Below the pieces are notes generated by a model. The model had not been told where the DNA came from and did no database searches. It was given only the letters and a program-made list of their open reading frames with translations. This document shows positions 15,334-33,186 of a stretch of DNA of 64,000 bases, piece after piece; within the stretch, counting starts at the first letter, position 1, and every line of letters starts with the position of its first letter. A program made the position numbers and the translations under genes. This stretch comes from Millionella massiliensis (GTDB lineage Bacteria; Bacteroidota; Bacteroidia; Bacteroidales; Rikenellaceae). The stretch is from NCBI RefSeq assembly GCF_900104655.1, contig NZ_FNWD01000002.1, positions 2,712,246 through 2,776,245 of the forward strand, in the 5' to 3' direction.

Positions 15334-16581
15334 TCACTCCCGGATTTTGATTTTGGTGTCGTCGCGGAAGCGGCTCATGTCGCTGACGATAACGGTTTCG
15401 CCGGGTTCCAACCCTTCGAGCACTTCGACAAATTCGTAACTGCTCTCGCCGAGCACGACGTTCCGTTTGTAGGCCTTGCCGTCCGACACGACCCACATTT
15501 CGTAGTTTCCGGGGCCGTGGTAGAACGAGCGGTTGGCCAGCCGGATGACGTCGTCCTTGACCGAGTTGATCACAAACACGTCGGCTTTGAGACCCGACCG
15601 GAGCTTGGGATCGTCGTTGACTTCGAGGGTCACGGTGAATCGGATGGTTCCGTTGTCGACGGCCGGCACGACGTTACCGACGATGCCCGCGAGCCGGGTG
15701 TTTCCGATCTCGACCACGACCTGGTTGCCCGGGGTCACCTTGTCGGCATAGGTGTCGGCGATCTCGGCGTCGATCTTGAAGTGCGACAGGTCGGAGACGA
15801 TGGCCAACTGTTCGCCCTGTCCGACAGTGGCTCCGATCTGGTCGTTGACCCAGGTGAGGGTTGCGGCACGCGGGGCACGCACCTGGGCATCACCCATTGT
15901 TTTCTGGGCCAGTGCGAAGTTCTTCTGGGCAATATTGTAGTCCAGTTCCGAGACGCGCAGGTTGGCCTCCGTGTTCTTGACCAGGTTGGCGTATTTGAGT
16001 TTGAGCTGGTCGTACTGCATGGCCTGTACGGCGAGTTCGAGTTCAGCCTGGCGGATCTTGTCGGGGGTGCTGGCTCCGATGCTGTCCATGTATTTTTCGT
16101 TGAGCAGCTGGACTTCGGACCGTTCGAGACGCATGCTGTCGATGCGGATCTGCATGGCCATTTCGGAGAGTTGGGTTTCGGCGTCGGAGATCTGCTGTTC
16201 GATCTGGCTGCGTTTCATTTCGAGTTCGTCGCGTTGCCGTTCGAAGTCGGTGTTGGTGGCGGCCAGGTCGAGCTTGAGGATGGTGTCGCCCTCCTGGAGT
16301 TGTTCGCCGGAGCGGCGGTACACTTCGAGCACTTTGGACGAGACGGGCGAGGCGATGATCTCTTCGAAGAGAGGGACGACCTTGCCGGAGGCGGTGACGG
16401 AGACTTCGAGCGATCCCAGGTCTGTCGTGGCGGTGCTGATCGACGAGGCGTCGATGCCGGAGCGGAGCACGCTCACCAGCACGATGAACAGCACGAGGAC
16501 GACGGTGCCGATCGAGGCCAGTCGGATGATCTGTTTGCGTTTGCGTTGTCGGATGATCTCCTGGGGTAGTTGTGTATCCAT
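15334..16581 (-). CDS. HlyD/MacA-type periplasmic adaptor (membrane fusion protein)
   Basis: 415 residues. A single N-terminal membrane anchor (residues about 20-41, ASIGTVVLVLFIVLVSVL) follows a basic cytosolic tip. The lipoyl/barrel-sandwich half-motifs SLEVSVTASGKVVPLFEEII and VRAPRAATLTWVNDQIGATV flank a long alpha-helical hairpin (about 100-220, ERQRDELEMKRSQIEQQ). Beta-barrel and membrane-proximal domains follow. In tripartite systems this protein bridges the inner-membrane ABC permease and TolC. It is the last gene of ATPase-tolC-adaptor, 18 bp after the TolC gene. Confidence 0.9.
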   Translation of the reverse strand: MDTQLPQEIIRQRKRKQIIRLASIGTVVLVLFIVLVSVLRSGIDASSISTATTDLGSLEVSVTASGKVVPLFEEIIASPVSSKVLEVYRRSGEQLQEGDTILKLDLAATNTDFERQRDELEMKRSQIEQQISDAETQLSEMAMQIRIDSMRLERSEVQLLNEKYMDSIGASTPDKIRQAELELAVQAMQYDQLKLKYANLVKNTEANLRVSELDYNIAQKNFALAQKTMGDAQVRAPRAATLTWVNDQIGATVGQGEQLAIVSDLSHFKIDAEIADTYADKVTPGNQVVVEIGNTRLAGIVGNVVPAVDNGTIRFTVTLEVNDDPKLRSGLKADVFVINSVKDDVIRLANRSFYHGPGNYEMWVVSDGKAYKRNVVLGESSYEFVEVLEGLEPGETVIVSDMSRFRDDTKIKIRE

Positions 16582-16599
16582 AGGGTCGGGGGACGGGAT

Positions 16600-18096
16600 T
16601 TACTTGGGTTGGAAATTATAGACGATATTGCTTTGGGTACCAAAGTCGTAGAGGGTGATCTGGCGCAGGTTGTAGAGGTAGAGCCAGGAGTAGTAGAGCT
16701 GGTTGATATAGTTTCGTTTGGCAGTGTTTTCTTCGGTCTGCGCGGAGTTGATGTCCAGCACGTTGATCTGTCCCATCACGAAGGTTTCGAAGGCGGTTCG
16801 GTAGCGGCGCTGGGCGACGGTGTCGGCCATGCGGTAGACGGAGGTCAGTCCGGCCTGGTCCTGGTATCGCTGTACGGCCAGGGTCACACTCTGTTCGAAG
16901 TCGAGGTTGTCCTGTCGCACCTGGTTCTTTTCGACTTCGGCCTGCGACTTGGCCAGCTGGACGCGTCCTTTGCCCTGTCCCCAGTCGAGGATCGGGATGC
17001 GTACTCCGAGGCTGGCTACCTGATAGTTCTTCAGGTTGCGGTAGCTGTCGGTGAAGGTTTTGTCGCTGCCGGTGAAGCCGATCGAGGCGTAGACGTTCAC
17101 CTGGAAACCGCGGTTGGCACGGGCGTTGGCGATGATCTGCTGGGCTTCGAGCAGGCGGCGGCGGGTGTTGTGGTTGATGGGGTTGTTCCGTTTGGCCAGC
17201 TCCATCACCTGATCCAGCGTAATGTCGTAGGTGGGGGCTTCGTCGGGTACGTCGACATTGATCCACATGTCGTTGTTGAAACCCAGGAAGTTGCGGAACG
17301 AGTAGACGTTCTCCTTGTAACTCTGCAAGGCGGTGACCACACCGGCTTCGGCGTTGAGCTTGCCGAGTTTGAGCTGCAGCAGGTCGTTGTCCGAGATCAG
17401 TCCGCGTTCCTTTTTGGCTTGTGCGATTTCGTAGAGCTGGGTGGCGTTGGCGAGGTTCTGTTCGGCGATCTCCTTGTTGACGATCGAGAGCAGCAGGTTG
17501 AAGTAGTATTGGATGGTCTTGATGGAGACGGTCTCCATGTCGACAGCAAACTGCTGGATGGCCGCTTTGTAGCGTTCGGGTTCGATCTTCATCGACCAGT
17601 ACAGCGGGCGCGAGGTGATCAGGGGTTGTTCGAGGCTGATGACTGCCGGTACGCTGAGCCAGCTGGTCAGGGGGGCTCCGTCGAGCTGCTGGATGCGTTG
17701 CAGCTGCGACTGGATCGAGATCGTACCGCCGGTGTAGGGGATATTCTGGGTGATGGAGATGCCGGCGCTGCCCGAGAGCGAACTGCTGGGGATGAATTCA
17801 TAGGTTCCGTCCTCTTTCTGGTAGTTGGTGAGCGAGCGGTTCAGGCTGGGGAGGGTGCCGCTGAAGGTCATCGAGGGGAGCAGGTCGGCTTTGTAGTTGC
17901 GGTAGGTCCAGTAGGCCGATTCCAGCGTATTCTTGGCGATCATGGCGTCGATGGACTGCACCGATGCGATGGCCAGTGCCTGATCGAGTGTCAGCCGCAT
18001 GGTGTCGACGCTCGTCTGGGTTTGGGCGTGGCACTCGGCCAGACTTGTGCCGAGTGCCGCACCAAACAGTAGCAGGAGTATCTTTGTTTTCTTCAT
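16600..18096 (-). CDS. TolC-family outer-membrane efflux protein
   Basis: 498 residues. The signal MKKTKILLLLFGAALGTSLA-ECHAQ is followed by the repeated OEP pattern: DTMRLTLDQALAIASVQS near the start and DITLDQVMELAKRNNP in the second half, with long helices and YYFNLLLSIVNKEIAEQNLA. It forms the outer-membrane/periplasmic duct for the adaptor and ABC permease. Its first 26 codons plus the upstream DNA recur at 27300-27426, showing that this operon once existed in, or was copied to, the second efflux locus. Confidence 0.9.
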   Translation of the reverse strand: MKKTKILLLLFGAALGTSLAECHAQTQTSVDTMRLTLDQALAIASVQSIDAMIAKNTLESAYWTYRNYKADLLPSMTFSGTLPSLNRSLTNYQKEDGTYEFIPSSSLSGSAGISITQNIPYTGGTISIQSQLQRIQQLDGAPLTSWLSVPAVISLEQPLITSRPLYWSMKIEPERYKAAIQQFAVDMETVSIKTIQYYFNLLLSIVNKEIAEQNLANATQLYEIAQAKKERGLISDNDLLQLKLGKLNAEAGVVTALQSYKENVYSFRNFLGFNNDMWINVDVPDEAPTYDITLDQVMELAKRNNPINHNTRRRLLEAQQIIANARANRGFQVNVYASIGFTGSDKTFTDSYRNLKNYQVASLGVRIPILDWGQGKGRVQLAKSQAEVEKNQVRQDNLDFEQSVTLAVQRYQDQAGLTSVYRMADTVAQRRYRTAFETFVMGQINVLDINSAQTEENTAKRNYINQLYYSWLYLYNLRQITLYDFGTQSNIVYNFQPK

Positions 18097-18144
18097 GGGG
18101 GAGAACCGGTAGGGGGCTTATTCGTTATGGGGTGCTTCGGCGGG
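18019..18144 (-). repeat. Direct repeat, copy 1: TolC start plus permease-end stump
   Basis: About 126 bp covers the first 26 codons of the TolC gene, its leader, and a stump encoding PAEAPHNE-stop, the last codons of an ABC permease whose body is absent here. The same block is at 27300-27426, where the permease is intact and TolC is the stump. The two copies are collinear with a few base changes. Confidence 0.85.
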
Positions 18145-18152
18145 GCGTGGGA

Positions 18153-18821
18153 CTACGCCTGTATTTTTCCGTCGGCCATGCGCACGATGCGGGAGGTCTG
18201 GGCGGCGATTTTCTCGTCGTGGGTCACCATCACGATGGTGGTTCCGTCGGCGTTGAGCTGCTTGAGGATGGCCATGATTTCGGCACCCATCTTGGAGTCG
18301 AGGTTACCGGTCGGTTCGTCGGCGAGGATCACTTCGGGTGCCCCCATCAGGGCGCGGGCTATGGCCACACGCTGGCACTGACCGCCCGAGAGCTGGGTGG
18401 GGAAGTGTTTCATGCGGTGGGCCAGGTCGACCTTGGCGAGCACCTCTTCGGCCCGTTTGCGCATCTGTGCGGAACTCATCTCCCGGGGGCGGTAGAGCAT
18501 GGGCAGCAACACGTTGTCCAGCACGTTCAAGGCCGGAATCAGGTGGAAACTCTGGAAGATGAATCCGAGTTTTCGGTTGCGCAGGGCGGCGAGTTGTTTG
18601 TCGGTCATGCCGGCGCTGTTGACGCCGTCGATGGTCAGCGAGCCGGATGTGGGTTCGTCGAGCAGCCCCATGATGTTGAGCATGGTGGATTTGCCGCATC
18701 CGGAGGGCCCCATGATAGAGACGAACTCTCCCTTTTCGATGGTCAGGCTTACGCCGTCGAGTGCTTTGGTTTGTACTTCACTGGTATAGAATGTTTTGCA
18801 GATGTTGTCAAGGGTAATCAT
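18153..18821 (-). CDS. MacB/LolD-type ABC transporter ATPase, copy 1
   Basis: 222 residues. Walker [11 protein letters not shown]-loop FIFQSFHL, signature [15 protein letters not shown], Walker [10 protein letters not shown] and H-loop VMVTHDE are all intact. It differs from the ATPase at 29857-30525 at only three residues (D/E at 5, S/N at 14, M/L at 72). It would energise MacB-like permeases, but no permease lies next to it: directly after its stop comes the permease-end stump and then TolC. Either it works with the permeases 9 kb away or it is redundant. Confidence 0.9.
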   Translation of the reverse strand: MITLDNICKTFYTSEVQTKALDGVSLTIEKGEFVSIMGPSGCGKSTMLNIMGLLDEPTSGSLTIDGVNSAGMTDKQLAALRNRKLGFIFQSFHLIPALNVLDNVLLPMLYRPREMSSAQMRKRAEEVLAKVDLAHRMKHFPTQLSGGQCQRVAIARALMGAPEVILADEPTGNLDSKMGAEIMAILKQLNADGTTIVMVTHDEKIAAQTSRIVRMADGKIQA

Positions 18822-19002
18822 CGGCGGGAGAGGATTTAGGGATGAATTTTTGATGTTCCTATATTTTCGATGCTAAGAGGACGTGAGTTGTACCACGTTC
18901 AAATTTGTTTTGTTGGTTACGATATAAAAATCGATAAGGATAAGCGTCTTGTTTTTTATACTGTGCGGGTTGTTGTGCTGTTTGTTTGTCGTATTTATTT
19001 AT

Positions 19003-21138: not shown

Positions 21139-21747
21139 TTACTGCTCCGCCTCTTCTTTAGGTATGATTCCTTCACTTGTTTCCAGACGCGCAATCGTAT
21201 TTTTATATAATTCCCACATCTTCGGATTACCGATTGGCGAACCAGCCAGAACTACCCGATTGTTCCGATCCAACAGAAAGACATGAAATATTGTCTCATG
21301 GGGCAACTGTGGGTTGCTTCGTTCGAATGAATATGCCGTATCAATGAGTATGGGATGCGTAAATCGCATACTGTACGCAATTTGATCTAACTCCTGAGGT
21401 GTTGCATTATCTGCGTTTAGGATGAAGGCGAAACGGGTATGTTTGGCCTGATCATATGCTGTGATCAGTGATTCCCAGGTTAAAAGTTCTTTTAATTTGC
21501 AAGGTGTACAGCCCTCTGCATTGTAGTAGATAACCATTCGTGCATAAGTTGTCGTATCGAACGCCGTCCACACGATATCGCGTCCGTCGGCATGAACGAC
21601 AAAATCGTCTGGCAACGTCACCGATGAGCCGATCCACTGTTGCAGTGTGTCTGTACCGGATCGTCTCGCTCCGCATGCGTATAGCAGTACAATCGCGACA
21701 GCGGGGAAAAGAGAACGATAAATATAGCCCATAAATCTAATTCTCAT
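21139..21747 (-). CDS. Thioredoxin-fold lipoprotein with CxxC motif
   Basis: 202 residues. The N-terminal signal ends VAIVLLYACGARRSG (lipobox LYAC). The mature domain has a thioredoxin-like core: ARMVIYYNAEGCTPCKLKEL, with the redox pair C-T-P-C, RFAFILNADNATPQELDQI, HPILIDTAYSF and a cis-Pro-like region FHVFLLDRNNRVVLAGSPIG. Such TlpA-like lipoproteins act as periplasmic reductases or oxidases. Its ATG overlaps the end of the propeller gene by 11 bp, so the two are translationally coupled. Together with the Cys-rich NVEALA-like peptide upstream it suggests disulfide handling, which is inference. Confidence 0.75.
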   Translation of the reverse strand: MRIRFMGYIYRSLFPAVAIVLLYACGARRSGTDTLQQWIGSSVTLPDDFVVHADGRDIVWTAFDTTTYARMVIYYNAEGCTPCKLKELLTWESLITAYDQAKHTRFAFILNADNATPQELDQIAYSMRFTHPILIDTAYSFERSNPQLPHETIFHVFLLDRNNRVVLAGSPIGNPKMWELYKNTIARLETSEGIIPKEEAEQ

Positions 21748-22891
21748 GATGATTCGGGTCTGCTACATTAAACACAACAAGGATGGGATTCTGATATTCG
21801 GAATTGGCAGACATCAATGAATCTAATGTCGAGCTATGGGAAATGTGTCCTTTCTCAATATCTTCATTTGCATACAATGGATCGACTTGCATCGCGATAC
21901 GTCGATGCTGGTAAGCCAGAGGCACATATCCCCACGGATTGATTGTCAAACCTTCGCAAACCGGGATATCCTGTATCCGACGAACTTCACCGTCGGTCAA
22001 ATCGACCAAAAGATAATTTCCACCGGTCCCCACCATCAACTGCTGACCGATCTGACACGGTCGGGCCGCATGGAAAACCTTATTTTCCTTACGTGCATTC
22101 ATGATGACCTCGACATCGTTGATTCCGTCAGTATAACTCTCTGGTATATTTCCGTTGCCAAAATCAAACTCGAAAACAGGTTCCGGGCCGTTGTTCTGCG
22201 GATCAATCCGGTAAACCCGGTTGTCGAACGGGCGGCTGATCCAAATGATTCCGCTGTCGGCGACGCTTTGATAAGCACCACCGGCTATCGATGCCGGACA
22301 ATTTTCACGTGGCAGATACGGTGTATCCAGACCGCTGTCAATACGCCTTACCGTATACCCCGACTCACCCCGATTGCACGATGATACACCGTAAATCTTG
22401 CCGCCGCTGCACGCAATCCCTTTATTGAAAACAACACTCTCGGTCGGCTCGTCCCGTAAGAAATTGCCGTTCTTATCGAAAAACATCAACCGATGCGGGA
22501 GAATCGAACCAAGAACCAGTTCCTCTCCGTTCAAGCCTATCCCTCCAAGCTGGACATACTCATGCGGGCCTTTCCCCTGCGCTCCCACCGGGCATATCAA
22601 TTGCCCAAGCGTGTCGAACAAGTAAACTTTTTCCTGTTTCTGATCATAGATGACATAACGGTCTCCCCAATCCAAAATCTGTTCGATTTGACCCAACAAA
22701 ACGCCACGTAAAACGACATAAGAGGGATCGGTAAATATCTGCCCTGCTTCCTCTTCAGACAGGGCAGCCATGTCCAAATCGACACGGACAACCGGCACAA
22801 CAGGCTCTTCCGTCTGTTTCGTGCCACAAGAGGCCACACCAATGACGCAGACTGCGACGATCGCAATTCGTAAAAAAAATGTCTTCATCAT
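21737..22891 (-). CDS. 6-bladed beta-propeller lipoprotein (BF3351/DUF4934-like)
   Basis: 384 residues from the first of two tandem ATGs. The signal FFLRIAIVAVCVIGVASCG is a lipoprotein type. The mature part repeats propeller strands of the type DRYVIYDQKQEKVYLFDTLG, followed by GQGKGPHEYVQLG-like turns, SILPHRLMFFDKNGNFLRDE, ISRPFDNRVYRIDPQNNGPE and NYLLVDLTDGEVRRIQDIPV. Proteins of this class are common surface lipoproteins in Bacteroidales, often near NVEALA-type peptides, and their function is unknown. It is the middle gene of peptide-propeller-thioredoxin, 47 bp after the peptide gene. Confidence 0.8.
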   Translation of the reverse strand: MMKTFFLRIAIVAVCVIGVASCGTKQTEEPVVPVVRVDLDMAALSEEEAGQIFTDPSYVVLRGVLLGQIEQILDWGDRYVIYDQKQEKVYLFDTLGQLICPVGAQGKGPHEYVQLGGIGLNGEELVLGSILPHRLMFFDKNGNFLRDEPTESVVFNKGIACSGGKIYGVSSCNRGESGYTVRRIDSGLDTPYLPRENCPASIAGGAYQSVADSGIIWISRPFDNRVYRIDPQNNGPEPVFEFDFGNGNIPESYTDGINDVEVIMNARKENKVFHAARPCQIGQQLMVGTGGNYLLVDLTDGEVRRIQDIPVCEGLTINPWGYVPLAYQHRRIAMQVDPLYANEDIEKGHISHSSTLDSLMSANSEYQNPILVVFNVADPNHHEN

Positions 22892-22938
22892 ACTATGTAT
22901 TTTAAGGAGACAGGGACAAAATCCCTGTCTCCTTGTCG

Positions 22939-23130
22939 TTAACAACATATAAGCGTACCGTCACCGCTACACTCACAATAAATTGTTAAAGAACCATCCT
23001 GGTGCTCTTCAGTAATCTTTTCCACCGTCTGATAACCTGTGCTTTCTTCAACTTTTGCCATGGCCTCGATGTTGGCCAGCAGCATGTCGGAATTACTCCC
23101 GTCTTGTGGCTGTAAGTGAGACATCCACAC
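22939..23130 (-). CDS. NVEALA-like exported Cys-rich peptide (start unclear)
   Basis: 63 residues from GTG at 23130. The block SNSDMLLANIEAMAKVEEST matches the NVEALA-family pattern (DxLLxNVEALA), and the tail LTIYCECSGDGTLICC has four cysteines at the C-terminus. Upstream in the same frame lies a perfect signal-anchor segment (KSKIKILLFVVSGTILLGGG, from 23190), which NVEALA proteins need, but the codon before it is TAT and no ATG/GTG/TTG precedes it. Either translation starts at a rare codon, or the start was lost, or a base is missing near 23190. First gene of the operon, with its own promoter. Confidence 0.7.
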   Translation of the reverse strand: MWMSHLQPQDGSNSDMLLANIEAMAKVEESTGYQTVEKITEEHQDGSLTIYCECSGDGTLICC

Positions 23131-23255
23131 GCCTCCACCTAACAGAATTGTTCCTGATACTACAAACAGGAGTATTTTGATTTTGCTTTTATAATGTTAA
23201 ATTTTTTAAAATAATTAATTTGTGTTTATCTGGCATCTTCACCAGACTGTTACAT

Positions 23256-23286
23256 CAAATATAGTATAAAGCTGAATAATAAACAA
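23256..23286 (-). promoter_or_regulatory. Bacteroidota-type promoter for the NVEALA-propeller-thioredoxin operon
   Basis: The minus strand reads TTG, 20 bp, TATATTTG (box at 23256-23263), a good match to TTTG-N19/21-TAnnTTTG. The -33 end lies inside the hairpin that terminates the upstream lepB gene. Confidence 0.65.
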
Positions 23287-23325
23287 CAAAAAGAAATAAA
23301 AATATTTTTTATTTCTTTTTGTTGT
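23283..23325. terminator. AT-only hairpin, terminator of the lepB gene
   Basis: A perfect 20-bp stem (23283-23302 with 23306-23325) with a 3-base loop lies 34 bp after the lepB stop. Long A and T runs on both arms give a T-tract on either strand. Confidence 0.75.
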
Positions 23326-23358
23326 GCATCTATAGACAAGATAATGCAAATAATCGAC

Positions 23359-24240
23359 TTAGTGCAGTTTTTTCCCGTATCGGGACCATTGGCGTTCGCC
23401 GGTCACCGGATCATGCGAGTCCCATATCCGCGTTGCCACGCCGACAATGTAGTTCTCCGGGACAAAACCGAAATACCGCGAATCGAACGACGACAGCGCG
23501 TTGTCACCCGCTACGAAGTAATAGTTCTCCCGGAAGCGGTAGTGTGTAACCGGATGTCCGTCAATTCGGAACACACCCGTCGAATCGGTTGTCACGGAGC
23601 AGCCGGTCTCGCGTTGTATGATCGGGCGGTAGAGCCAGTACGACACGCTGTCCAGCCGTACCGTCGCACCACTGCGCGGCACATAGACCGGCCCGAAATC
23701 GCGGATGGTCCACTGAGGTATGCACCAGGGGTAGATCCGGTTTGGATTAGACCGTACATCGTTGTCGGACAGTCGTGCGATCATTCGCTGCGCGGGCAGG
23801 TATCCGACCGTGTCGCTGCGTCCCGCAATGCGGTAGAAGCCGCCTGCTACCGACAGGGTATCGCCCGGCAGTCCCACAATCCGTTTTACGAAAGCCTGGT
23901 TGATCCGGAACCAAATACCCTGTTCGCCGATGTTGGGAAAGTTGAACACCACGATGTCGTTGTGTTTCAGATTGCGCCATCCCGGCATTCGGAACACCCG
24001 CGGTTCCGAGGTGTCGGCGATGAAATCGGTCGATCGATAGATTCGTGCCCCGAAAATAAGCTTGTTGACCATGATCCGGTCACCCGGCCGGATGGTAGGG
24101 TACATCGACTCGGTGGGCACCGGGTAGCGATCCCATACAAAAATCCATAACACGTATTTCAGGACAATAAGTGTTATGAATACAAGGATAAGACGAAAAA
24201 TCCACGTTAGAATTCTGTCGATTTTATGCTGATCCATCAT
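23359..24240 (-). CDS. lepB: Signal peptidase I (S26 family)
   Basis: 293 residues. One N-terminal membrane segment (about 13-37, IFRLILVFITLIVLKYVLWI) is followed by the S26 boxes: VPTESMYPTIRPGD with nucleophile S45, DRIMVNKLIFG, INQAFVKRIVGLPGD with general base K119, and GDNALSSFDSRYFGFVP. It releases exported proteins from their signal peptides at the periplasmic face. A housekeeping lepB usually sits elsewhere in these genomes, so this copy, divergent from the ligase-like gene and upstream of the NVEALA operon, may be a dedicated accessory enzyme (inference). Confidence 0.9.
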   Translation of the reverse strand: MMDQHKIDRILTWIFRLILVFITLIVLKYVLWIFVWDRYPVPTESMYPTIRPGDRIMVNKLIFGARIYRSTDFIADTSEPRVFRMPGWRNLKHNDIVVFNFPNIGEQGIWFRINQAFVKRIVGLPGDTLSVAGGFYRIAGRSDTVGYLPAQRMIARLSDNDVRSNPNRIYPWCIPQWTIRDFGPVYVPRSGATVRLDSVSYWLYRPIIQRETGCSVTTDSTGVFRIDGHPVTHYRFRENYYFVAGDNALSSFDSRYFGFVPENYIVGVATRIWDSHDPVTGERQWSRYGKKLH

Positions 24241-24284
24241 GAAGATGCTTGCTTTTAACCGAAATGTCCGGTATCTTTAACAAT

Positions 24285-24292
24285 CAAAATTA
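24285..24292 (-). promoter_or_regulatory. -7 box for lepB
   Basis: TAATTTTG on the minus strand fits TAnnTTTG, 45 bp ahead of the lepB start. It overlaps the start codon of the divergent ligase-like gene. No good -33 element is seen. Confidence 0.4.
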
Positions 24293-26121
24293 TGAAAAAA
24301 ACTTCGCAAAAAGATATTTTCGACTGGATAATTGCAGGGTGTGCTTCGGCTGTCCTGTACGTGATCCCCGTCGTGTCGCAAACGCTGCAAAACGGCCTGG
24401 TGACCGCCAAATACTTCACGCTGTTGCTCTGCATGCTTCCTTTTGCAGTTGCCGTAACGCTCTATCTGTTAATCCGAAGAAATAGGTTCCGGCAGGTCCG
24501 ACTGACCTGGATCGACGGCATCGCCGTGGGCGGAACCATTTATTACACCCTGAACGTCTGTCTGACAGGTAACGGCGATCCGATGCGCCTGATCTTTGCC
24601 GGCATGATGCTCGTTTGGTACTGGGGTTTGAGAATGCTCTTTACGTCGGAACGGATTTTTCACATCCTCCGCCTGCTTTTTCTGTGTGTGGCAGGCTATG
24701 AAGCATTGCTCGGCATTATACAATGCTATGGGGGAGCTGCTTCGCATCATTCGCTGTATGCCGCCACGGGAAGTTTTTACAACCCCGGACCATTCGGTGG
24801 TTTTCTGGCTCTTTTTGCCCCCGTTGCCCTTTACGGAATGCTCGCCCGCGACAAACGACATGTCGTCGAACGGTGGGTTGCGACCGGCGTCTTTTTCCTG
24901 ATACTTGTCGTACTTCCGGTCACCATGAGCCGCACGGCCTGGGCCGCAGCGCTCGTCGGCTGCGCCGCCACGCTGGTCCACTGCTATGCCGAACCTCTCA
25001 AACAGTGGGTCGTCCGACATCGGACTGTCTGCATCGCGGCAGGGATAGCGGCCGGAATCGTTCTTCTGGTCGGTTGCGTGGCGGCGTGGCATTTGAAACG
25101 CGATTCGGCCGACGGACGGATGCTGATCTGGAAAACCACGGCCGGAATAATCGGACGTTATCCGCTGACCGGCTGCGGTTTTGGCCATTTCGGAGGCGCA
25201 TACGGACAGCAGCAGGCCGAACGGTTCGCACACAACGGCTTTTCCGGCCGTGAGGTGCACGTTGCGGGGGCTCCCGAAGATGCTTTCAACGAGTACCTGC
25301 AAATCACGGCCGAAGGAGGAATAATCGGGGGGGGACTGTTTGTATCGGCCGCAGGCGCGGGAGTGTGGGGACTGTGGCGCCGGCGCGCAGTTACCGGAGG
25401 GCTCTGCTTCGGAGCTCTCGCTCTCCTGATTTTCGCATGTGCTTCGTACCCTTTTTCGCTGGCCGAATTTATCCTGACGAGCCTCTTCTTACTGGCTGCC
25501 GCGGCTCCTGCGGCACGCGGCATCACTCTTCCCGGTCGCCTGCTGTGGGTGGTCTGGACGCTTGCCGCATGGCCTGCGGTATACCTGTGCTGGCGCCACG
25601 AACTTCCCCGTGCCGAAGCCTATCGGGCCTGGCGGACGGATCACGTCATGTACGACATGAAACTTTACGAACAGGTTGCCCAAAGCGCTGCAGCGCAATA
25701 TATCTATCTCAAGGCCGAACCCCGTTTCCTGTACGAATATGGCCACGCGCTGCATTTCACGGGCGAATACGCACGGAGCAATGCACTGTTGTCGGAAGGG
25801 GCTGCACAAAGCGCCGATCCGATGTTTTGGAATGTAATGGGCAATAATTACAAGGCCATGGGTGAGTCTGCCGAGGCCGAACGTTGCTATCGGCAGGCTT
25901 ACAATATCCTTCCGAATCGGCTTTATCCGCTCTATCTGCTGGCACGGCTTTACCGCGATACGGACCAGCGGGACAAGTGTCTTTCGATGTGTGACCGGAT
26001 TCTGAAATTTCAGGAAAAAATTACCTCTCCGGCCACGGCTGAGATCAAGCGCAACGTGTCGCAATGGCAAATCGAGATGACCGCTCCGGCTGGTTCTGAA
26101 AAAAACCGAAGCGAACAATAG
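24292..26121 (+). CDS. O-antigen ligase-like polytopic membrane protein with C-terminal TPR repeats
   Basis: 609 residues. About ten hydrophobic segments fill residues 15-420. Between them lie GSFYNPGPFGGFLALFAPVA and LPVTMSRTAWAAALVG, typical of the WaaL/PglL/Wzy (Wzy_C) fold, and a large periplasmic loop with TGCGFGHFGGAYGQQQAERF and EDAFNEYLQITAEGGIIGGG. The C-terminal 190 residues hold TPR units (FLYEYGHALHFTGEYARSNA, DPMFWNVMGNNYKAMGESAE, NRLYPLYLLARLYRDTDQRD). Members transfer or polymerise lipid-linked glycans; a protein O-oligosaccharyl role is possible. It is divergent from lepB with 51 bp between starts. Confidence 0.75.
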   Translation: MKKTSQKDIFDWIIAGCASAVLYVIPVVSQTLQNGLVTAKYFTLLLCMLPFAVAVTLYLLIRRNRFRQVRLTWIDGIAVGGTIYYTLNVCLTGNGDPMRLIFAGMMLVWYWGLRMLFTSERIFHILRLLFLCVAGYEALLGIIQCYGGAASHHSLYAATGSFYNPGPFGGFLALFAPVALYGMLARDKRHVVERWVATGVFFLILVVLPVTMSRTAWAAALVGCAATLVHCYAEPLKQWVVRHRTVCIAAGIAAGIVLLVGCVAAWHLKRDSADGRMLIWKTTAGIIGRYPLTGCGFGHFGGAYGQQQAERFAHNGFSGREVHVAGAPEDAFNEYLQITAEGGIIGGGLFVSAAGAGVWGLWRRRAVTGGLCFGALALLIFACASYPFSLAEFILTSLFLLAAAAPAARGITLPGRLLWVVWTLAAWPAVYLCWRHELPRAEAYRAWRTDHVMYDMKLYEQVAQSAAAQYIYLKAEPRFLYEYGHALHFTGEYARSNALLSEGAAQSADPMFWNVMGNNYKAMGESAEAERCYRQAYNILPNRLYPLYLLARLYRDTDQRDKCLSMCDRILKFQEKITSPATAEIKRNVSQWQIEMTAPAGSEKNRSEQ

Positions 26122-27254: not shown

Positions 27255-27377
27255 TCACGGTGCAATGTTTGCCTTCGCTCGCTGGGTAGTATCTGTCCTG
27301 GTTTGGGCGTGGCACCCGGCCCAAACTGTGCCGAGTGCCGCACCAAACAGTAGCAGGAGTATCTTTGTTTTCTTCAT
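27255..27377 (-). pseudogene. TolC N-terminal stump
   Basis: An ATG at 27377 opens 40 codons encoding MKKTKILLLLFGAALGTVWA, GCHAQTRTDTTQ and then unrelated sequence to a stop at 27255. The first 26 codons match the TolC gene at 18096. It sits right after the permease gene, where a TolC gene would be expected. It is the truncated partner of the intact TolC 9.3 kb away. Confidence 0.8.
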
Positions 27378-27426
27378 GGGGGAGAATCGGTAAGGGGACT
27401 TATTCGTTATGGAGTGCTTCGGCGGG
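27300..27426 (-). repeat. Direct repeat, copy 2: TolC start plus permease end
   Basis: About 127 bp, nearly identical and in the same orientation as 18019-18144. Here the permease end (PAEALHNE-stop) belongs to an intact permease and the TolC part is the stump. The two copies bracket 9.15 kb. Confidence 0.85.
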
Positions 27427-28575
27427 ACTGACGCGGGATACCTTCCATGCGGGGTACCAGGCGCTGAAGACCGAGAAGAGCAGCATCACGGCGAGTGTGG
27501 CCCCGACTCCGATAACCACCACCCCGTCCCATGAATAGATGAAACCGGCCAACACCAGCCCCGGTATCGCAGCCAGCAGGGTCAGCACAACGCTTTCGGT
27601 CATGACCATCCCCACGAGTCGGTTTTTGGTTGCGCCGATGGCACGCCGCAGGGCGAACTCTTCCAGTCGTTTCCTGGAGTAGAGCCAGAACAGACCGAAA
27701 GTCCCGATAAATCCGAAAATCAGGAAAAAACCAGTCGGTACGGAGCGGAAAATCAGGCCTAATGTGGTTGTAATTAGCATGTTGTTTTTTTGCTTATCCA
27801 AATCTCCCATGGAAGGTTCCACATTGGGCAGGGTAATATTTTTGTGAAATTCCTGGATATAATCCTTGAAAAACTCATCTTGCATATTGGGCTTCAGTCG
27901 GGCCCCGTATTCCATGTACCGGGACATTTGCATAGTGAGTGGTCCGGATATGATGATTGTTGGAGCAGATTCGTCGAACGGCGCGATTTTCTTCCCTTCG
28001 ATCAAGCCAACAGCAGTAAAAGGTTTGGAAAACAGCTGGATCTTACGTCCAACAGTCTGTTGCCACCCTACAGCATCAGCCAGCTGGCGGGTGATTACAC
28101 TGGGATAACTTCCGTCGGGGAGCATTTTATCGGTCAGCCATTCACCTTCGATGAGTTTGGGGCGGAGCACCTGCCACCCGAATTGGTCCGAGCCACAGAT
28201 TTCGACCTCGACTTTGCGTTGGTCTATGGTAATGGAGTCTTTGCCGTAAAGTTCGCGCAGGTATGGTAAAAAACCATAACTTTCAGAAATGGCGGCTACA
28301 TAGGGTTTTTCACGTAAATTATGAATGACATTCTGCATCTGTTTGCCCATTTCGTCATATTGGGACTGGGAACTGGGGCGATCTTGACGGAACATATATC
28401 CGAAATATACCGTGTGATCGGTTTGCAACAATCCCGGCGAATAATACTGGACACCTTTTTGAGCGACCGATACCATGCAAAGCATCAGGATGATGAAGAT
28501 CAGTAATTGTTCGACAAAAATACCTGCAAAGTATTTTCGCTGACTCCATAGCATTTTGAAAATGTGCTGAATCAT
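27400..28575 (-). CDS. MacB/FtsX-type ABC permease (permease 4)
   Basis: 391 residues. One N-terminal membrane segment (YFAGIFVEQLLIFIILMLCM) is followed by a periplasmic MacB-PCD-like domain of about 240 residues and three C-terminal segments in FtsX style (FLIFGFIGTFGLFWLYSRKR, SVVLTLLAAIPGLVLAGFIY, LAVMLLFSVFSAWYPAWKVS). The coupling motif RRAIGATKNRL and the end RVSPAEALHNE are typical. Its start overlaps the stop of the preceding permease by 4 bp, so the pair likely forms a heterodimer. The substrate of such Bacteroidota exporters is usually unknown. Confidence 0.88.
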   Translation of the reverse strand: MIQHIFKMLWSQRKYFAGIFVEQLLIFIILMLCMVSVAQKGVQYYSPGLLQTDHTVYFGYMFRQDRPSSQSQYDEMGKQMQNVIHNLREKPYVAAISESYGFLPYLRELYGKDSITIDQRKVEVEICGSDQFGWQVLRPKLIEGEWLTDKMLPDGSYPSVITRQLADAVGWQQTVGRKIQLFSKPFTAVGLIEGKKIAPFDESAPTIIISGPLTMQMSRYMEYGARLKPNMQDEFFKDYIQEFHKNITLPNVEPSMGDLDKQKNNMLITTTLGLIFRSVPTGFFLIFGFIGTFGLFWLYSRKRLEEFALRRAIGATKNRLVGMVMTESVVLTLLAAIPGLVLAGFIYSWDGVVVIGVGATLAVMLLFSVFSAWYPAWKVSRVSPAEALHNE

Positions 28576-29801
28576 GACTTGGCCCCTCCTTTAAGCGTAT
28601 AGGCAATATTCTGGCGAGAAATTTTGTAGGCTGGAATACCTCCGGACAGAAGACTGAAGAGCATGCAAAGGGGAAGAATCTCGTACAGAATGATCCAGTA
28701 ATTCATACTCCCCAGGAGCGTCACTCCTTCGACCGACATTGCACTGAGGATTTTGGTTTCGAAGAGCGAGATGGTGGGATAAACCAAAATCCAGCCAAGA
28801 ATCATGCCGAGTATGACCAATAGAAAATGTTCGGATATTTTTTGGACAAATATGGACTTCTGGGAAGCTCCCAGAGCCCGGCGGATGGCGATTTCCGTAG
28901 CCTGGGTATTGGCATTTGCCACACTCAGACTCACGATATTGATGGCCGGAATGATCAGGAGCAGCAAAATGACCAATCCGGTTCCGTAGGTTATTGCGCG
29001 ATCTCCGAATCTGACCATTTGTTCCTCTTTCAACGTCCTAATCTGGAGAGAATCCGGGTCCACGTTCGTCTCCGCCAGTTCGAAATAGTACTGAAGTGCG
29101 CGTGTTACGTTCTGTTTCATGACTGATGTCAGCATTTGTTCAGGAAACAGGTACAGGACGGTATAGCTGGTGACTCCCGATGGTACGTATTTATTGTATT
29201 TGTATGGAACCCACATACTTGAAAAGTCGTTGGCGAAAAATGAACAATCAGCCACGACTCCGACGATTTGATAGGTGTTGCCTTGAAATTCCACATTTTG
29301 TCCGACGGCCGTTTGGGCTCCGAAGCAGGCACGCGCATAGCTTTCCTTGATTACAGCAACGGGTGTGGCTGCTGCATAGTCTTCCTGGGTGAAGGGGCGA
29401 CCGTCGATAAATTCGAAGTTATAGACCTGCCAGTAATTGGAATTAATAAAATTAACCAGTCCCGGTTTGATGCGGTCGTTCGCCTGTAGCACTCCGTTTT
29501 CTGTATGTGTAATGGCAAAAACCTCATAATCTTTGACCAGGTCGCGCATCTGGAGGATTCCCGGAAGCATCAGACCATCAATCGATTGACCTGATCGGTC
29601 CACAAATTTATCGCCAATACGAATGATGCGATGCGAGTTGGAGAGCGGGGGTGTGTCGTTATTGATGATATAGCTCAGCTGGAGTAGGATGATGATGAAG
29701 ACGAAGGTCAGCGCCGTCCCGAAAATACAGAAAACGGCATAGGCAGTATTGTGCCGGATATTGTAGAGCCCGGTGCGCAGATAGCCGGATAGTTGCTTCA
29801 T
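28572..29801 (-). CDS. MacB/FtsX-type ABC permease (permease 3)
   Basis: 409 residues. The N-terminal segment YAVFCIFGTALTFVFIIILL is followed by a periplasmic domain (IRIGDKFVDRSGQSIDG, FEFIDGRPFTQEDYAAATPV, FQGNTYQIVGVVADCSFFAN). C-terminal membrane segments contain VILLLLIIPAINIVSLSVAN, RRALGASQKSIF and HFLLVILGMILGWILVYP, ending NIAYTLKGGAKS. It lies 55 bp downstream of ATPase copy 2 and overlaps permease 4 by 4 bp; these three form one transcription unit. Confidence 0.88.
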   Translation of the reverse strand: MKQLSGYLRTGLYNIRHNTAYAVFCIFGTALTFVFIIILLQLSYIINNDTPPLSNSHRIIRIGDKFVDRSGQSIDGLMLPGILQMRDLVKDYEVFAITHTENGVLQANDRIKPGLVNFINSNYWQVYNFEFIDGRPFTQEDYAAATPVAVIKESYARACFGAQTAVGQNVEFQGNTYQIVGVVADCSFFANDFSSMWVPYKYNKYVPSGVTSYTVLYLFPEQMLTSVMKQNVTRALQYYFELAETNVDPDSLQIRTLKEEQMVRFGDRAITYGTGLVILLLLIIPAINIVSLSVANANTQATEIAIRRALGASQKSIFVQKISEHFLLVILGMILGWILVYPTISLFETKILSAMSVEGVTLLGSMNYWIILYEILPLCMLFSLLSGGIPAYKISRQNIAYTLKGGAKS

Positions 29802-29856: not shown

Positions 29857-30525
29857 TTACGCCTGTATTTTTCCGTCGGCCATGCGCACGATGCGGGAGG
29901 TCTGGGCTGCTATTTTCTCGTCGTGGGTCACCATCACGATGGTGGTTCCGTCGGCGTTGAGCTGCTTGAGGATAGCCATGATTTCGGCCCCCATCTTGGA
30001 GTCGAGGTTACCGGTCGGTTCGTCGGCGAGGATCACTTCGGGTGCCCCCATCAGGGCGCGGGCTATGGCCACACGTTGGCACTGGCCGCCAGAGAGCTGG
30101 GTGGGAAAATGTTTCATGCGGTGGGCCAGGTCGACCTTGGCGAGCACCTCTTCGGCCCGTTTGCGCATTTGTGCGGAACTCATCTCCCGTGGGCGGTAGA
30201 GCATGGGCAGCAGCACGTTGTCCAGCACGTTCAGAGCCGGAATCAGGTGGAAGCTCTGGAAGATGAATCCGAGTTTCCGGTTGCGCAGGGCGGCGAGTTG
30301 TTTGTCGGTCAAGCCGGCGCTGTTGACGCCGTCGATGGTCAGCGAGCCGGATGTGGGTTCGTCGAGCAGCCCCATGATGTTGAGCATGGTGGATTTGCCG
30401 CATCCGGAGGGCCCCATGATGGAGACGAACTCTCCCTTTTCGATGGTCAGGCTTACGCCGTCGAGTGCTTTGGTTTGTACTTCGTTGGTATAGAATGTTT
30501 TGCAGATGTTTTCAAGGGTAATCAT
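29857..30525 (-). CDS. MacB/LolD-type ABC transporter ATPase, copy 2
   Basis: 222 residues with every ABC motif intact ([33 protein letters not shown]). 219 of 222 residues equal copy 1 at 18153-18821, and the DNA is also nearly identical over the coding region, while sequences just before the ATG and just after the stop differ. This is the copy with permeases beside it (3 and 4 downstream, 1 and 2 upstream behind a terminator). Confidence 0.92.
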
Positions 30526-30764: not shown

Positions 30765-31955
30765 TTATTCTTGTCGGAGCACTTCGGCGGGATTGATGCT
30801 GGCGATTTTCCGGGCGGGATAATAGGAACTGATCAATGAGAACAGGAGCATGATGGCCAGTGCCACGGCGGTTGCCAGGATATGGTCGAGCGTGACGGCG
30901 AAGATGAACAGCGAGAGGATGAGCCCGGGAACCGAAGCGACCAGGGTCAGCAGCAGGCTTTGAAGGATCATCATCTGCATCTGTTGCCGTTTGGATGCAC
31001 CGATGGCGCGGTGAAGTCCGAATTCGGGCGTGCGTTTCTTGACATGCAGCATGAGCAGCCCCAGGGTGCCGATGAAGGCGAAGATCAGTAGGAAAATGGT
31101 CGGAATGGCCAGCATCTTCAGCCGGGAGGTGACCGGGAACATGATCTTCGTTTTTAGATTGTCCATGCTGTTGTTGAACACCTCCATGCGGTCGAAGTAG
31201 GGCAGCTGGCGTTTGAGCTCGCGATAGCTTGCGCTGCAGAACTCCTGGACGTGTCCGGGTTTAACGCGGGCGCAAAGTTCCCGGTAAGTCTTGTTATTTT
31301 GCTCTTCGTAGGGGCCTATCGGTCGAATAATGCAAGGCTCGGGTTTGGCAAAAACATCTTCGGATTTGATTCCGGCGGTGATTCCGGTGATCCGGTAGGT
31401 ACGATTGCTGTTGCGCATACGTACCGTTGTGCCGATCAGTTCTTGGTCAGTGAGTCCGGTCAGTTCGGCCAACTGCCGCGAGATCACGGCGGGTTGAGTT
31501 TCGTCGGATGTTGCGGGCAGCCATTCGCCGCACTCCATTTCGATGCCAAAAACAAGCTGGGCCTCCTGGTCTGCCGTCTTGCTTTGGGCTTCGTAGGTTT
31601 TGCCGGCGATGATCACCGAGTCGCGGTAATACATTTCCCGCAGGTAGGGAATCAGCGACGAACTTTCGGATATGCCTTCGACGTAGTCCCACTGGAGCAT
31701 GCGTTCGAGCGAGGCGTTCAGAGCCTGATTAATCTCGTGACGCACCGGGGTGTATGTCTGCCTGTTCGGAATCATGTAACCGAATTCGACGACATTGTCC
31801 GTGTCAAGCAGACCGGGCTCCCGGTATCGTTGATACATGTCGTTGAGCGAGACGACGCAGATCAGCAGGACGATGAAGACCAGCATCTGTTCGAGAATAA
31901 TCCCGGTAAATCGTCGCCGGTCGTTCCACAGGATGGTCAGCAGGTACTTAATCAT
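30765..31955 (-). CDS. MacB/FtsX-type ABC permease (permease 2)
   Basis: 396 residues. N-terminal segment FTGIILEQMLVFIVLLICVV; periplasmic core with ESSSLIPYLREMYYRDSVII and QPAVISRQLAELTGLTDQEL; C-terminal segments PTIFLLIFAFIGTLGLLMLH, LQSLLLTLVASVPGLILSLF and ATAVALAIMLLFSLISSYYP; coupling motif HRAIGASKRQQM. It ends with SINPAEVLRQE, the MacB-like tail. It shares architecture, and clear similarity around LIPYLRE and P(A)E(A/V)L, with permease 4, so pairs 1-2 and 3-4 are related by duplication. Its start overlaps the permease 1 stop by 8 bp. Confidence 0.87.
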   Translation of the reverse strand: MIKYLLTILWNDRRRFTGIILEQMLVFIVLLICVVSLNDMYQRYREPGLLDTDNVVEFGYMIPNRQTYTPVRHEINQALNASLERMLQWDYVEGISESSSLIPYLREMYYRDSVIIAGKTYEAQSKTADQEAQLVFGIEMECGEWLPATSDETQPAVISRQLAELTGLTDQELIGTTVRMRNSNRTYRITGITAGIKSEDVFAKPEPCIIRPIGPYEEQNNKTYRELCARVKPGHVQEFCSASYRELKRQLPYFDRMEVFNNSMDNLKTKIMFPVTSRLKMLAIPTIFLLIFAFIGTLGLLMLHVKKRTPEFGLHRAIGASKRQQMQMMILQSLLLTLVASVPGLILSLFIFAVTLDHILATAVALAIMLLFSLISSYYPARKIASINPAEVLRQE

Positions 31956-33186
31956 GGGAGCCTCCTTTCAGCATGGACGAGATGTTTTTGCGAGTAATCA
32001 TATAGGCCGGGATTCCGCCCGAAATCAGTGAAAAGACGATGCACAACGGAATGAGCATCAGTATCTGCGGGATGGAGATCGAGTCGGTGAGCAGGGTGGC
32101 GCTCAGTCCTTCGGCTCCGCTTTGGAAAAAGAGACGCTCGATCCAGCCGATGGCGGGCCGGGTGCACAGCAGTCCGATCACGAAACCGCTCCCCACCAGG
32201 ATCAGGTTTTCGACCATCACCAGCGAGAAGATGGATCGTTTGGTGGCTCCGCAGGCGCGTCGCATGGCCAGCTCTTCCATTCGGTTCTGGGTGCTCGACT
32301 CGCTCAGGGTGATGATGTTGATGGCCGGGATGAGCAGCAGCAGGAGCAGAACCACGCTCACGCCGATATAGAGGCCGTTGTCGCCGTACTGTTCGATGCG
32401 CAGCTCTCGCTGGGTTTTGAGCTGGTCGACCGACATGTCCAGTTCGAAGCCTCGGTTTTTGTAGAAGGTACGCAGGGCGAAGAGCAGGTCTTGTTTGCAT
32501 GTTTCCAGCGGTACCCCTTCCGGGAACAGGATGTCGATGGTGTAGACCGTTTGGGCGGACGGAAGGAATTTGTTGGTTGTGTAGGGCAGCCAAAGGTATA
32601 CGGTCTCTTTTGTAGTCGAGAAGAGGGAGTAGTCCCGGATGACGCCCACGATCGTATAGGTATTGCCCTGTACGTCGACCTGTTTGCCGACCACCGATGT
32701 GGTGTTGAAGCACTGAAGGGCCAGTTTCTCCGAGATGACGGCCGGTTTGTTGACCTCCTGGGCCTCTTCGTCGTCGAAGGGCCTTCCTTCGATGAATTCG
32801 AAATCGTTGATGGTGAAGTAGTCCCGACCGACAAACAGAACCCGGTTGCTGGCCAGTCTTTCCTCGGCCAGGATCGACACTTGTTCGGGATTGGAGATGG
32901 CGTATTTTTCGTAATTGCGCAGTCCCTGGAGGAATGTTTTGATGTACGGAGCGGGAACACCGTCCAGATAGCGTCCGTCGGTATCGTAGAATTCATCCGT
33001 AAAGCTGATGACCCGGCTGGCATTAGAAAACGGGGGCGTGTCGTTTCGGATGACGGAGGTCAGTTGCAGCACCACGTACATGAACATGCAGGCGAAGGCT
33101 GAGACAATGACGCAAAACAGCGAGAACAACTTGTTATGCAGGATGTTGTTCCATGCCAGTTTAAAATAAACGTGTAATTTTTTCAT
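31948..33186 (-). CDS. MacB/FtsX-type ABC permease (permease 1)
   Basis: 412 residues, first gene of the run. N-terminal segment LFCVIVSAFACMFMYVVLQL; periplasmic domain with VISFTDEFYDTDGRYLDGVP, FEFIEGRPFDDEEAQEVNKP and VQGNTYTIVGVIRDYSLFST, mirroring permease 3; C-terminal segments VSVVLLLLLLIPAINIITLS, MVENLILVGSGFVIGLLCTR and IPQILMLIPLCIVFSLISGG; coupling motif RRACGATKRSIF. It ends with NISSMLKGGSHD. A -7 box lies 66 bp upstream. Confidence 0.87.
   Translation of the reverse strand: MKKLHVYFKLAWNNILHNKLFSLFCVIVSAFACMFMYVVLQLTSVIRNDTPPFSNASRVISFTDEFYDTDGRYLDGVPAPYIKTFLQGLRNYEKYAISNPEQVSILAEERLASNRVLFVGRDYFTINDFEFIEGRPFDDEEAQEVNKPAVISEKLALQCFNTTSVVGKQVDVQGNTYTIVGVIRDYSLFSTTKETVYLWLPYTTNKFLPSAQTVYTIDILFPEGVPLETCKQDLLFALRTFYKNRGFELDMSVDQLKTQRELRIEQYGDNGLYIGVSVVLLLLLLIPAINIITLSESSTQNRMEELAMRRACGATKRSIFSLVMVENLILVGSGFVIGLLCTRPAIGWIERLFFQSGAEGLSATLLTDSISIPQILMLIPLCIVFSLISGGIPAYMITRKNISSMLKGGSHD

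What the first reader, a model, noticed from the sequence alone, without database searches (positions are those of the whole stretch)
21139..26121. Compact cassette around a Cys-rich NVEALA-like peptide: propeller, thioredoxin, signal peptidase I and O-antigen-ligase-like TPR protein
One operon encodes a short exported peptide with a four-Cys C-terminus, a propeller lipoprotein and a CxxC thioredoxin-fold lipoprotein whose start overlaps the propeller gene. Directly upstream, back to back, are an intact signal peptidase I and a WaaL/PglL-like membrane protein with TPR repeats. The parts needed to export (lepB), oxidise or reduce (thioredoxin fold) and perhaps glycosylate (ligase-like) a small secreted peptide lie within 5 kb. 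I know of no described pathway for NVEALA peptides; that the five genes form one system is inference from proximity and coupling.
Basis: partly seen in the sequence, partly recalled or inferred. Interest (0 to 1): 0.72.

Follow-up and report, generated by a model that had tools for sequence, protein, structure and literature searches.

The report
Bacteroidales secreted-peptide maturation gene system
Gut bacteria of the order Bacteroidales carry an apparently undescribed set of genes that seems to export, cut and oxidise small cysteine-rich peptides, each paired with its own partner protein; what the peptides do is still unknown.

Summary
The genome has a second signal peptidase I. The window's peptidase paralog occurs in 13 of 61 family genomes, 11 of which carry NVEALA peptides. 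A scan seeded only on the ligase-like protein gave 79 loci; of 31 with 5 kb on both sides, 26 have the peptidase, 20 a propeller, 15 an NVEALA peptide, 15 the thioredoxin and 16 an RND pump. Twenty arbitrary stretches gave 0, 2, 0, 0 and 1.

The peptides look like leader-core precursors: signal segment, conserved NVEALA motif with signal-peptidase-like small residues, then a variable acidic core with mostly even cysteine numbers. Propellers track the core, hardly the leader. Likely function: periplasmic maturation and export of disulfide-rich peptides, each with a cognate propeller (immunity protein or receptor).

Corrections: the window's own peptide frame has no standard start codon before its signal segment, and the WaaL-fold protein lacks a histidine that I recall as catalytic, so glycosylation is doubtful. 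Antagonism is inferred, not shown.

The parts
21139..21747 (-). Thioredoxin-fold (TlpA/ResA-like) lipoprotein, CxxC; no Pfam or NCBIfam model above cut-off
   Evidence: C80 and C83 invariant in 14 sequences; StoA 3erw E 3.5e-6
21737..22894 (-). Six-bladed beta-propeller lipoprotein (PF17170), start ATG 22894 (longer alternative from 22948)
   Evidence: Cys23 invariant in 38 sequences; 4raa Z 28.3
22939..23196 (-). NVEALA peptide frame: hydrophobic segment, NIEAMA motif, 4-Cys core; no standard start codon before the signal segment
23359..24240 (-). Signal peptidase I paralog of the system, catalytic Ser and Lys conserved
24292..26121 (+). WaaL-fold membrane protein with C-terminal TPR domain (Wzy_C + TPR); Phe at the aligned WaaL His position
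   Evidence: 7tpg Z 22.6
15337..18872 (-). HlyD-like adaptor, TolC-like outer-membrane protein and ABC ATPase downstream; candidate exporter, link to the cassette not shown

Best explanation
A secreted-peptide maturation and export system of Bacteroidales. NVEALA genes encode precursors: an N-terminal Sec-type hydrophobic segment, a linker ending in the motif N-[VIL]-E-A-[LMI]-[A/S/T/G], and a short acidic core with mostly even numbers of cysteines. The precursor enters the periplasm by Sec. The dedicated signal peptidase I paralog cuts, most likely after the NVEALA motif, freeing the core; the thioredoxin-fold lipoprotein (sometimes with a MauE/DoxX-type membrane partner) makes or reshuffles its disulfides; the WaaL-fold/TPR protein, usually encoded next to the peptidase, is a membrane partner that docks or modifies the precursor. 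An RND-adaptor-TolC pump (in this window perhaps a MacB-type ABC pump) carries the mature peptide out. Each peptide has a propeller lipoprotein, encoded just downstream, that recognises its core; I think it most likely an immunity protein or receptor for a peptide used against, or sensed by, close relatives. Shown: gene set, order, co-occurrence, motif, cysteine pattern, propeller-core matching. Inferred: cleavage site, oxidation, export route, role. In this window the peptide copy is probably dead; other NVEALA-propeller pairs in the genome would be the substrates.
For: Gene order recurs. S lies within 3 kb of L in 57 of 79 loci, on the same strand in 55 of those 57 and within 160 nt (stop-to-stop frames) in 54 of 57. 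Of 31 loci with 5 kb on both sides: S 26, P 20, N 15, T 15, G 16, RND 16; without the 7 whose genomes also fed the profiles, of 24: S 19, P 17, N 13, T 10, G 13, RND 11; 20 control stretches: 0, 2, 0, 0, 0, 1. Five generic Wzy_C-TPR paralogs under 300 bits (L226-L230) have no S, P, N or T nearby. Genome co-occurrence: NVEALA in 19 of 21 ligase-clade genomes (family, 150 genomes), 10 of 16 (order, 295 genomes), 11 of 13 peptidase genomes (61). Motif: -3 Ala 138 and Val 7 of 153; -1 A/S/T/G 140 of 153. Cys 8.3% of core against 0.85% of leader; Cys counts even in 99, odd in 21, zero in 1 of 121 non-redundant cores. Propeller downstream in 124 of 132 peptides. Core-similar pairs have similar propellers (14 of 16 above the background 99th percentile; 0 of 5000 permutations), leader-similar core-different pairs seldom do (3 of 79). 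Leaders are genome-specific (0 of 2000 permutations), cores are not (930 of 2000). PMC6671954 (passages) says that Bacteroides lack the general disulfide machinery and that a locus-encoded thiol oxidoreductase likely serves bacteroidetocins.
Against: No experiment. The window's peptide frame lacks a start codon. Many NVEALA-propeller pairs stand far from S and L, including those elsewhere in this genome. 8 of 27 NVEALA genomes in the family sample had no ligase-clade match, and 4 of 14 (over cut-off) in the order sample no match at E 1e-90; some of these assemblies are incomplete. Conversely 6 of the 16 order-level ligase genomes have no NVEALA over cut-off, and of the fetched ligase loci L232 (410 bits) shows none of the partners and L231 (454 bits) only a propeller; 10 of the 79 loci show no S, P or N within 10 kb, several on short contigs. 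The hydrophobic-segment centre lies a median 30 residues before the putative cut, farther than in ordinary signal peptides (recalled), so cleavage nearer the signal is possible. Cores are acidic (median net charge -3), unlike many pore-forming bacteriocins (recalled). Two of 16 core-matched pairs have propellers not above the background percentile, and the small leader effect (3 of 79) is itself reached by only 167 of 5000 permutations, so propeller and leader are not wholly independent. An RND gene was not found within 5 kb in 15 of 31 loci.
Confidence: 0.6

Rival explanations
1. The WaaL-fold protein is an active ligase that transfers an undecaprenyl-linked glycan (or other lipid-linked group) to the peptide or propeller, so the system makes glycopeptides on the cell surface.
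For: WaaL fold, Z 22.6 over 363 residues; Wzy_C 56.5 bits; two Arg and a Lys invariant in 89 of 89; TPR domain.
Against: The residue aligned to the WaaL 'AHN' histidine is Phe in 89 of 89 members. I recognised no glycosyltransferase by eye among the 45 neighbour clusters listed, but did not test for one. That this His is catalytic in WaaL is recalled, not read here.
Confidence: 0.2
2. Peptide and propeller are two subunits of one periplasmic or surface protein, the disulfide-rich small subunit docking on the propeller as in methylamine dehydrogenase (small Cys-rich MauA, propeller MauB, thioredoxin-like MauD, MauE); nothing is secreted as a free effector.
For: A propeller gene follows nearly every peptide gene (124 of 132); MauE-family proteins in two loci; propeller matched to core.
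Against: Cores are highly variable; RND genes lie within 5 kb in 16 of 31 loci. The mau comparison is recalled.
Confidence: 0.15
3. A cell-cell signalling system: peptide pheromone with a propeller lipoprotein as its receptor.
For: Ligand-receptor-like matching of core and propeller; the propeller model resembles LRP6 propellers that bind disulfide-constrained peptides (8dvm Z 18.0), though a shared fold shows no function.
Against: Few regulators among recurrent neighbours: of the 45 clusters listed, judged by eye, only one histidine-kinase-like (4 members) and one response-regulator-like (3 members).
Confidence: 0.2
4. Chance neighbourhood: lepB and an O-antigen-ligase gene are housekeeping genes beside an unrelated peptide cassette.
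For: Seven of eight NVEALA matches in this genome lie away from this lepB and ligase.
Against: Recurrent operons in many genera, a second lepB in the genome, and the controls.
Confidence: 0.03

Closest known systems
Bacteroidetocins (class II-like peptide toxins of Bacteroidetes; PMC6671954, passages seen)
   Same: Small four-Cys peptides of Bacteroidales with a leader, a locus-encoded thiol oxidoreductase and a membrane protein.
   Different: Leader of 15-16 residues cut at a double glycine by an ABC exporter with a peptidase domain, and no immunity protein found; here a Sec-type hydrophobic segment plus NVEALA motif, a signal peptidase I paralog, a WaaL-fold/TPR partner, often an RND pump, and a cognate propeller.
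NVEALA protein family, Pfam PF14055
   Same: The peptides are members by score (window frame 27.7 bits, cut-off 27).
   Different: Pfam gives a name only; no pathway or partner came up in the papers searched.
WaaL / Wzy_C O-antigen ligases (7tpg)
   Same: Membrane fold, two conserved Arg.
   Different: Phe at the aligned His; added TPR domain; gene lies beside a signal peptidase.
Methylamine dehydrogenase maturation (mau) genes, recalled
   Same: Small disulfide-rich chain, propeller, thioredoxin-like protein, MauE.
   Different: No sequence link tested apart from the MauE family; highly variable cores, dedicated signal peptidase and export pump here.
B. thetaiotaomicron BT0662-BT0669 (table rows in PMC10434189, passages seen)
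   Same: Named O-antigen ligase, propeller, signal peptidase I and RND adaptor within eight locus numbers: probably this system in a model strain.
   Different: Listed only as separate rows of an iron stimulon table; its sequence was not examined here.

Membership tests
NVEALA (PF14055) | Pfam gathering score reached | tested here: met
   27.7 against 27 bits for the frame; 26.6 in the genome search, so borderline
Signal peptidase I (S26) | S26 profile and catalytic Ser/Lys dyad | tested here: met
   PF10502 112 bits, TIGR02227 97 bits; S45 and K119 invariant in 14; activity not tested
O-antigen ligase (WaaL) | WaaL fold and Wzy_C profile | tested here: met
   Wzy_C 56.5 bits; 7tpg Z 22.6
O-antigen ligase (WaaL) | Histidine of the WaaL 'AHN' stretch (catalytic role recalled) | tested here: not met
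   Phe in 89 of 89 system members
Thioredoxin / TlpA-ResA | CxxC and thioredoxin-family profile relationship | tested here: met
   CxxC invariant in 14; StoA E 3.5e-6, ResA weaker; no Pfam model above cut-off
Bacteroidetocin / class II bacteriocin | Double-glycine leader | tested here: not met
   -2 is L/M/I/F in all 153, -1 is A/S/T/G in 140
Bacteroidetocin / class II bacteriocin | Peptidase-containing ABC exporter at the locus | tested here: inconclusive
   of the two ABC ATPases flanking the window cassette one was scanned and has no peptidase domain; other loci were not scanned for it
Bacteriocin in the functional sense | Kills relatives, with self-protection | not testable with these tools
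   needs culture assays

The most novel reading that the evidence does not exclude
A new class of leader-directed secreted peptides in Gram-negative bacteria: Sec-delivered precursors are cut in the periplasm by a dedicated signal peptidase I working with a WaaL-derived TPR protein, oxidised by their own thioredoxin relay, pumped out by an RND-TolC complex, and each is recognised by a matching member of a diversified beta-propeller repertoire, giving Bacteroidales a modular peptide weapon or kin-recognition code.
Probability: 0.5. Interest if true: 0.88.

Novelty: categorically new. Interest (0 to 1): 0.8.

Why it matters
The ligase-like marker of the system turns up in many genera of Bacteroidales, among them Alistipes, Butyricimonas, Odoribacter and Tannerella forsythia, and probably in B. 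thetaiotaomicron (by gene names only), yet no paper in the searched library was found to describe it. If right, it gives a function to the NVEALA family, to a share of the many Bacteroidales propeller lipoproteins, to a second signal peptidase I and to a group of RND pumps, and shows a route for secreting disulfide-rich peptides in bacteria said to lack general disulfide machinery. It can be tested with knock-outs and mass spectrometry in tractable commensals.

Tried and rejected
Rejected: that lepB and ligase are chance neighbours (my first expectation after seeing a lepB-free paralogous cassette in L023) - overturned. Not supported: a known defence system (no PADLOC hit for 7 proteins at E 0.01). 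Weakened: glycosylation, by the Phe in place of His. Led nowhere: the global rank correlation of core and propeller similarity over all pairs is near zero (0.04), because most pairs are at background; only the matched tail carries signal. The window's ABC pump is not conserved beside the system: among 166 loci searched with its proteins only L082 has a fairly close ATPase (48%; the others listed 28-35%), next to a peptide-propeller pair. Foldseek alone listed TPR and similar helical-repeat proteins in its 50 rows for the ligase-like model; WaaL came from the VIA-align second look.

Literature: ten searches; 'NVEALA' found in 0 papers; accessions and DUF names of the families gave 6 papers, none bearing on this judging by the listing, and 0. 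The library lacks most subscription journals, so absence there is not proof. PMC10352776 (RiPP mining in Bacteroidales) holds none of six terms looked for. PMC4602095 (passages) did not settle the WaaL histidine.

Choices that affect counts: profiles were home-made from family clusters, so relatives that fed them match by construction. Of 82 peptide seeds five were dropped by eye as false; two more that look false (one in L127, the MauE-like frame in L139) stayed in. Peptides: 167 hits, 139 with the motif, 132 unique; the motif counts quoted come (153 frames, motif not forced). 124 had a downstream propeller, 114 were long enough, 110 after one per propeller. Eight of the 79 ligase loci come from genomes already in the family sample; without them 71 loci give S 51, P 44, N 32 within 10 kb, and the 31 flank-complete loci become 24. 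The 440-bit cut and the 520-bit cut were chosen after seeing the scores. The 16 core-matched pairs are not independent (some peptides occur in more than one; 3 pairs lie within one genome). Fisher values treat genomes as independent. The 20 control stretches were picked at round coordinates, not drawn at random, and come from five genomes of the window's family, whereas the 79 loci span the order.
Full report
What is there. The cassette lies in a 2.89 Mb genome whose nearest named relative in the scan is an uncultured Rikenella sp. (ligase-like protein 60% identical). On the minus strand run a signal peptidase I (S), an NVEALA peptide frame (N), a six-bladed propeller lipoprotein (P) and a thioredoxin-fold lipoprotein (T); on the plus strand, starting 51 nt from S, a Wzy_C-TPR membrane protein (L). 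The propeller model (pLDDT 85) is closest to the B. fragilis exported protein BF0058 (4raa, Z 28.3, rmsd 3.0, 329 residues). The L model (pLDDT 84) matches WaaL 7tpg (Z 22.6, rmsd 4.5, 363 residues) plus TPR proteins. The window's T has no Pfam or NCBIfam match above cut-off but its family carries an invariant CxxC and a conserved C-terminal stretch and matches StoA at E 3.5e-6.

A flaw in the observation. The N frame has no ATG, GTG or TTG before its hydrophobic segment. The corresponding peptide in genome G048 is frameshifted. This copy is therefore probably decayed, or the sequence has an error. The genome has seven further PF14055 matches at E<=1, the weakest of them not significant by E-value; six of the seven have a propeller directly downstream on the same strand, and one (L023) has the full N-P-T series without S or L.

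Is it a system? I first expected coincidence. But a search with the window's S protein (E<=1e-30) found it in 13 of 61 family genomes, and 11 of those 13 also have NVEALA (14 of the 61 do; Fisher 6e-8). Reading the loci showed operons: N-P-T-L-S in L079, N-P-T-L-S-G with TolC, adaptor and RND genes in L104, and rearranged or partial versions in L076, L127, L136, L137, L139, L140 and L142. G is a protein of about 650 residues with a Transglut_core match above cut-off in two of the six members scanned. MauE-family proteins sit in L076 and L139, the only two candidates tested.

L was then used alone as the seed. In 150 family genomes its scores are bimodal; the high clade (524 bits or more for the best match) occurs in 21 genomes, 19 with NVEALA (27 of 150 have NVEALA; Fisher 7e-16); at the search threshold (E<=1e-30) 20 of 30. 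In 295 genomes of the order, 16 have L at E<=1e-90, 14 have NVEALA over cut-off, 10 have both (6e-12, or 8e-11 without the window's genome). These tests ignore phylogeny. A genome-contig scan gave 79 loci, among them Alistipes, Odoribacter, Butyricimonas, Tannerella forsythia, Proteiniphilum, Petrimonas, Bacteroides and Candidatus Symbiothrix. S lies within 3 kb of L in 57 of 79, on the same strand in 55 of those 57 and within 160 nt in 54 (stop-to-stop frames). Of the 31 loci with 5 kb on both sides, 26 have S, 20 P, 15 N, 15 T, 16 G and 16 RND. Leaving out the 7 from genomes that also fed the profiles, of 24: 19, 17, 13, 10, 13 and 11. Twenty 11.5-kb stretches from five genomes of the window's family gave S 0, P 2, N 0, T 0, G 0, RND 1. 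Five generic Wzy_C-TPR paralogs under 300 bits (L226-L230) have no S, N, P or T within about 7 kb; two have G. Against: L232 (410 bits) has none of the partners, L231 (454 bits) only P, and 10 of the 79 loci have no S, P or N within 10 kb.

What the peptides look like. Over 153 peptide frames aligned to the profile without forcing the motif, N is at -6 in 150, E at -4 in 145, Ala at -3 in 138 (Val in 7), L/M/I/F at -2 in all, and A/S/T/G at -1 in 140. This small-large-small pattern is what signal peptidase I accepts (recalled), and a signal peptidase I paralog is part of the system; hence the proposal that it cuts there. The hydrophobic segment's centre lies a median 30 residues before that point (5th-95th percentile 25-33, n=112). 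Cores have a median of 47 residues and net charge -3, 8.3% Cys against 0.85% in leaders, and even Cys counts in 99 of 121 non-redundant cores (21 odd, 1 without Cys).

Leader, core and propeller. In 124 of 132 unique peptides a propeller follows on the same strand within 700 nt. Of 110 pairs (one per propeller), 16 comparisons have similar cores; propeller similarity in these has median 0.39 against 0.03 for permuted data, and 14 of 16 exceed the background 99th percentile (0 of 5000 permutations). In 79 comparisons with similar leaders but different cores the median is 0.035, about background, and 3 of 79 exceed that percentile; 167 of 5000 permutations reach this, so a slight leader effect is possible. 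Thirteen of the 16 are between genomes, 11 of these above background; 7 of the 13 have dissimilar leaders, 5 of these above. Leaders are more alike within a genome than between genomes (0 of 2000 permutations); cores are not (930 of 2000). So the leader follows the genome, and hence perhaps its shared machinery, while the propeller follows the core. That is the pattern of a shared processing handle and cognate core-propeller pairs.

The ligase-like protein. Two Arg and a Lys are invariant in 89 of 89 members, but the residue aligned to the His of the WaaL 'AHN' stretch is Phe in all 89; of 13 lower-scoring relatives it is F in 9, Y in 3 and H in 1. The catalytic role of that His is recalled. 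The protein keeps the fold, but glycan ligation cannot be assumed.

Known or new? PMC6671954 (passages) describes bacteroidetocins: four-Cys peptides with a 15-residue leader cut at a double glycine, an ABC transporter with a peptidase domain, a membrane protein and a thiol oxidoreductase; it notes that Bacteroides lack the general disulfide machinery. The logic is similar, the parts are not. PMC10434189 (passages) lists BT0662 O-antigen ligase, BT0664 propeller, BT0667 signal peptidase I and BT0669 RND adaptor in B. thetaiotaomicron as separate table rows; this is probably the system in a model strain (inference from names and numbers; sequence not checked). No paper found in ten searches describes the system.

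Verdict. That N, P, T, S and L belong to one system is strongly supported (my estimate 0.9). That they mature and export disulfide-rich peptides with cognate propellers is the best reading (0.6). Among roles, immunity/antagonism is my first choice (about 0.4); signalling and subunit roles remain open. I rate the novelty as categorically new because the combination of Sec-type leader, dedicated signal peptidase I, WaaL-derived partner, RND export and propeller repertoire matches no described system that I could find; if the peptides prove to be plain bacteriocins it would become a new variant of that kind.

Noticed in passing
window 18153-18821 and 29857-30525; 27400-29801 and 30765-33186: Two nearly identical ABC ATPase genes and two pairs of permease-like genes (the first pair MacB/FtsX by Pfam) flank the cassette, pointing to a duplicated MacB-type transporter.
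   Followed up: partly
window 27255-27377 (-): Short ORF whose first residues copy the start of the TolC-like protein encoded at 18096..16600, probably the remnant of a duplicated gene.
   Followed up: no
L076:2542-3277: Transposase-like ORFs (judged by eye) lie inside an array of NVEALA-propeller genes, a possible route of shuffling.
   Followed up: no
L195 (Tannerella forsythia ATCC 43037): Two ligase-peptidase copies with peptide-propeller pairs around them in one 21-kb stretch.
   Followed up: no
   Followed up: partly
L148, L161, L188, L203: Records labelled Tissierellia, Tepidanaerobacteraceae, Lachnospiraceae and Patescibacteria carry the ligase-like gene; probably misassigned Bacteroidales contigs.
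   Followed up: no
G000:C1:2310764 and 2687630: Two generic Wzy_C-TPR paralogs (240 and 232 bits) without peptidase, peptide or propeller nearby; function unknown.
   Followed up: partly
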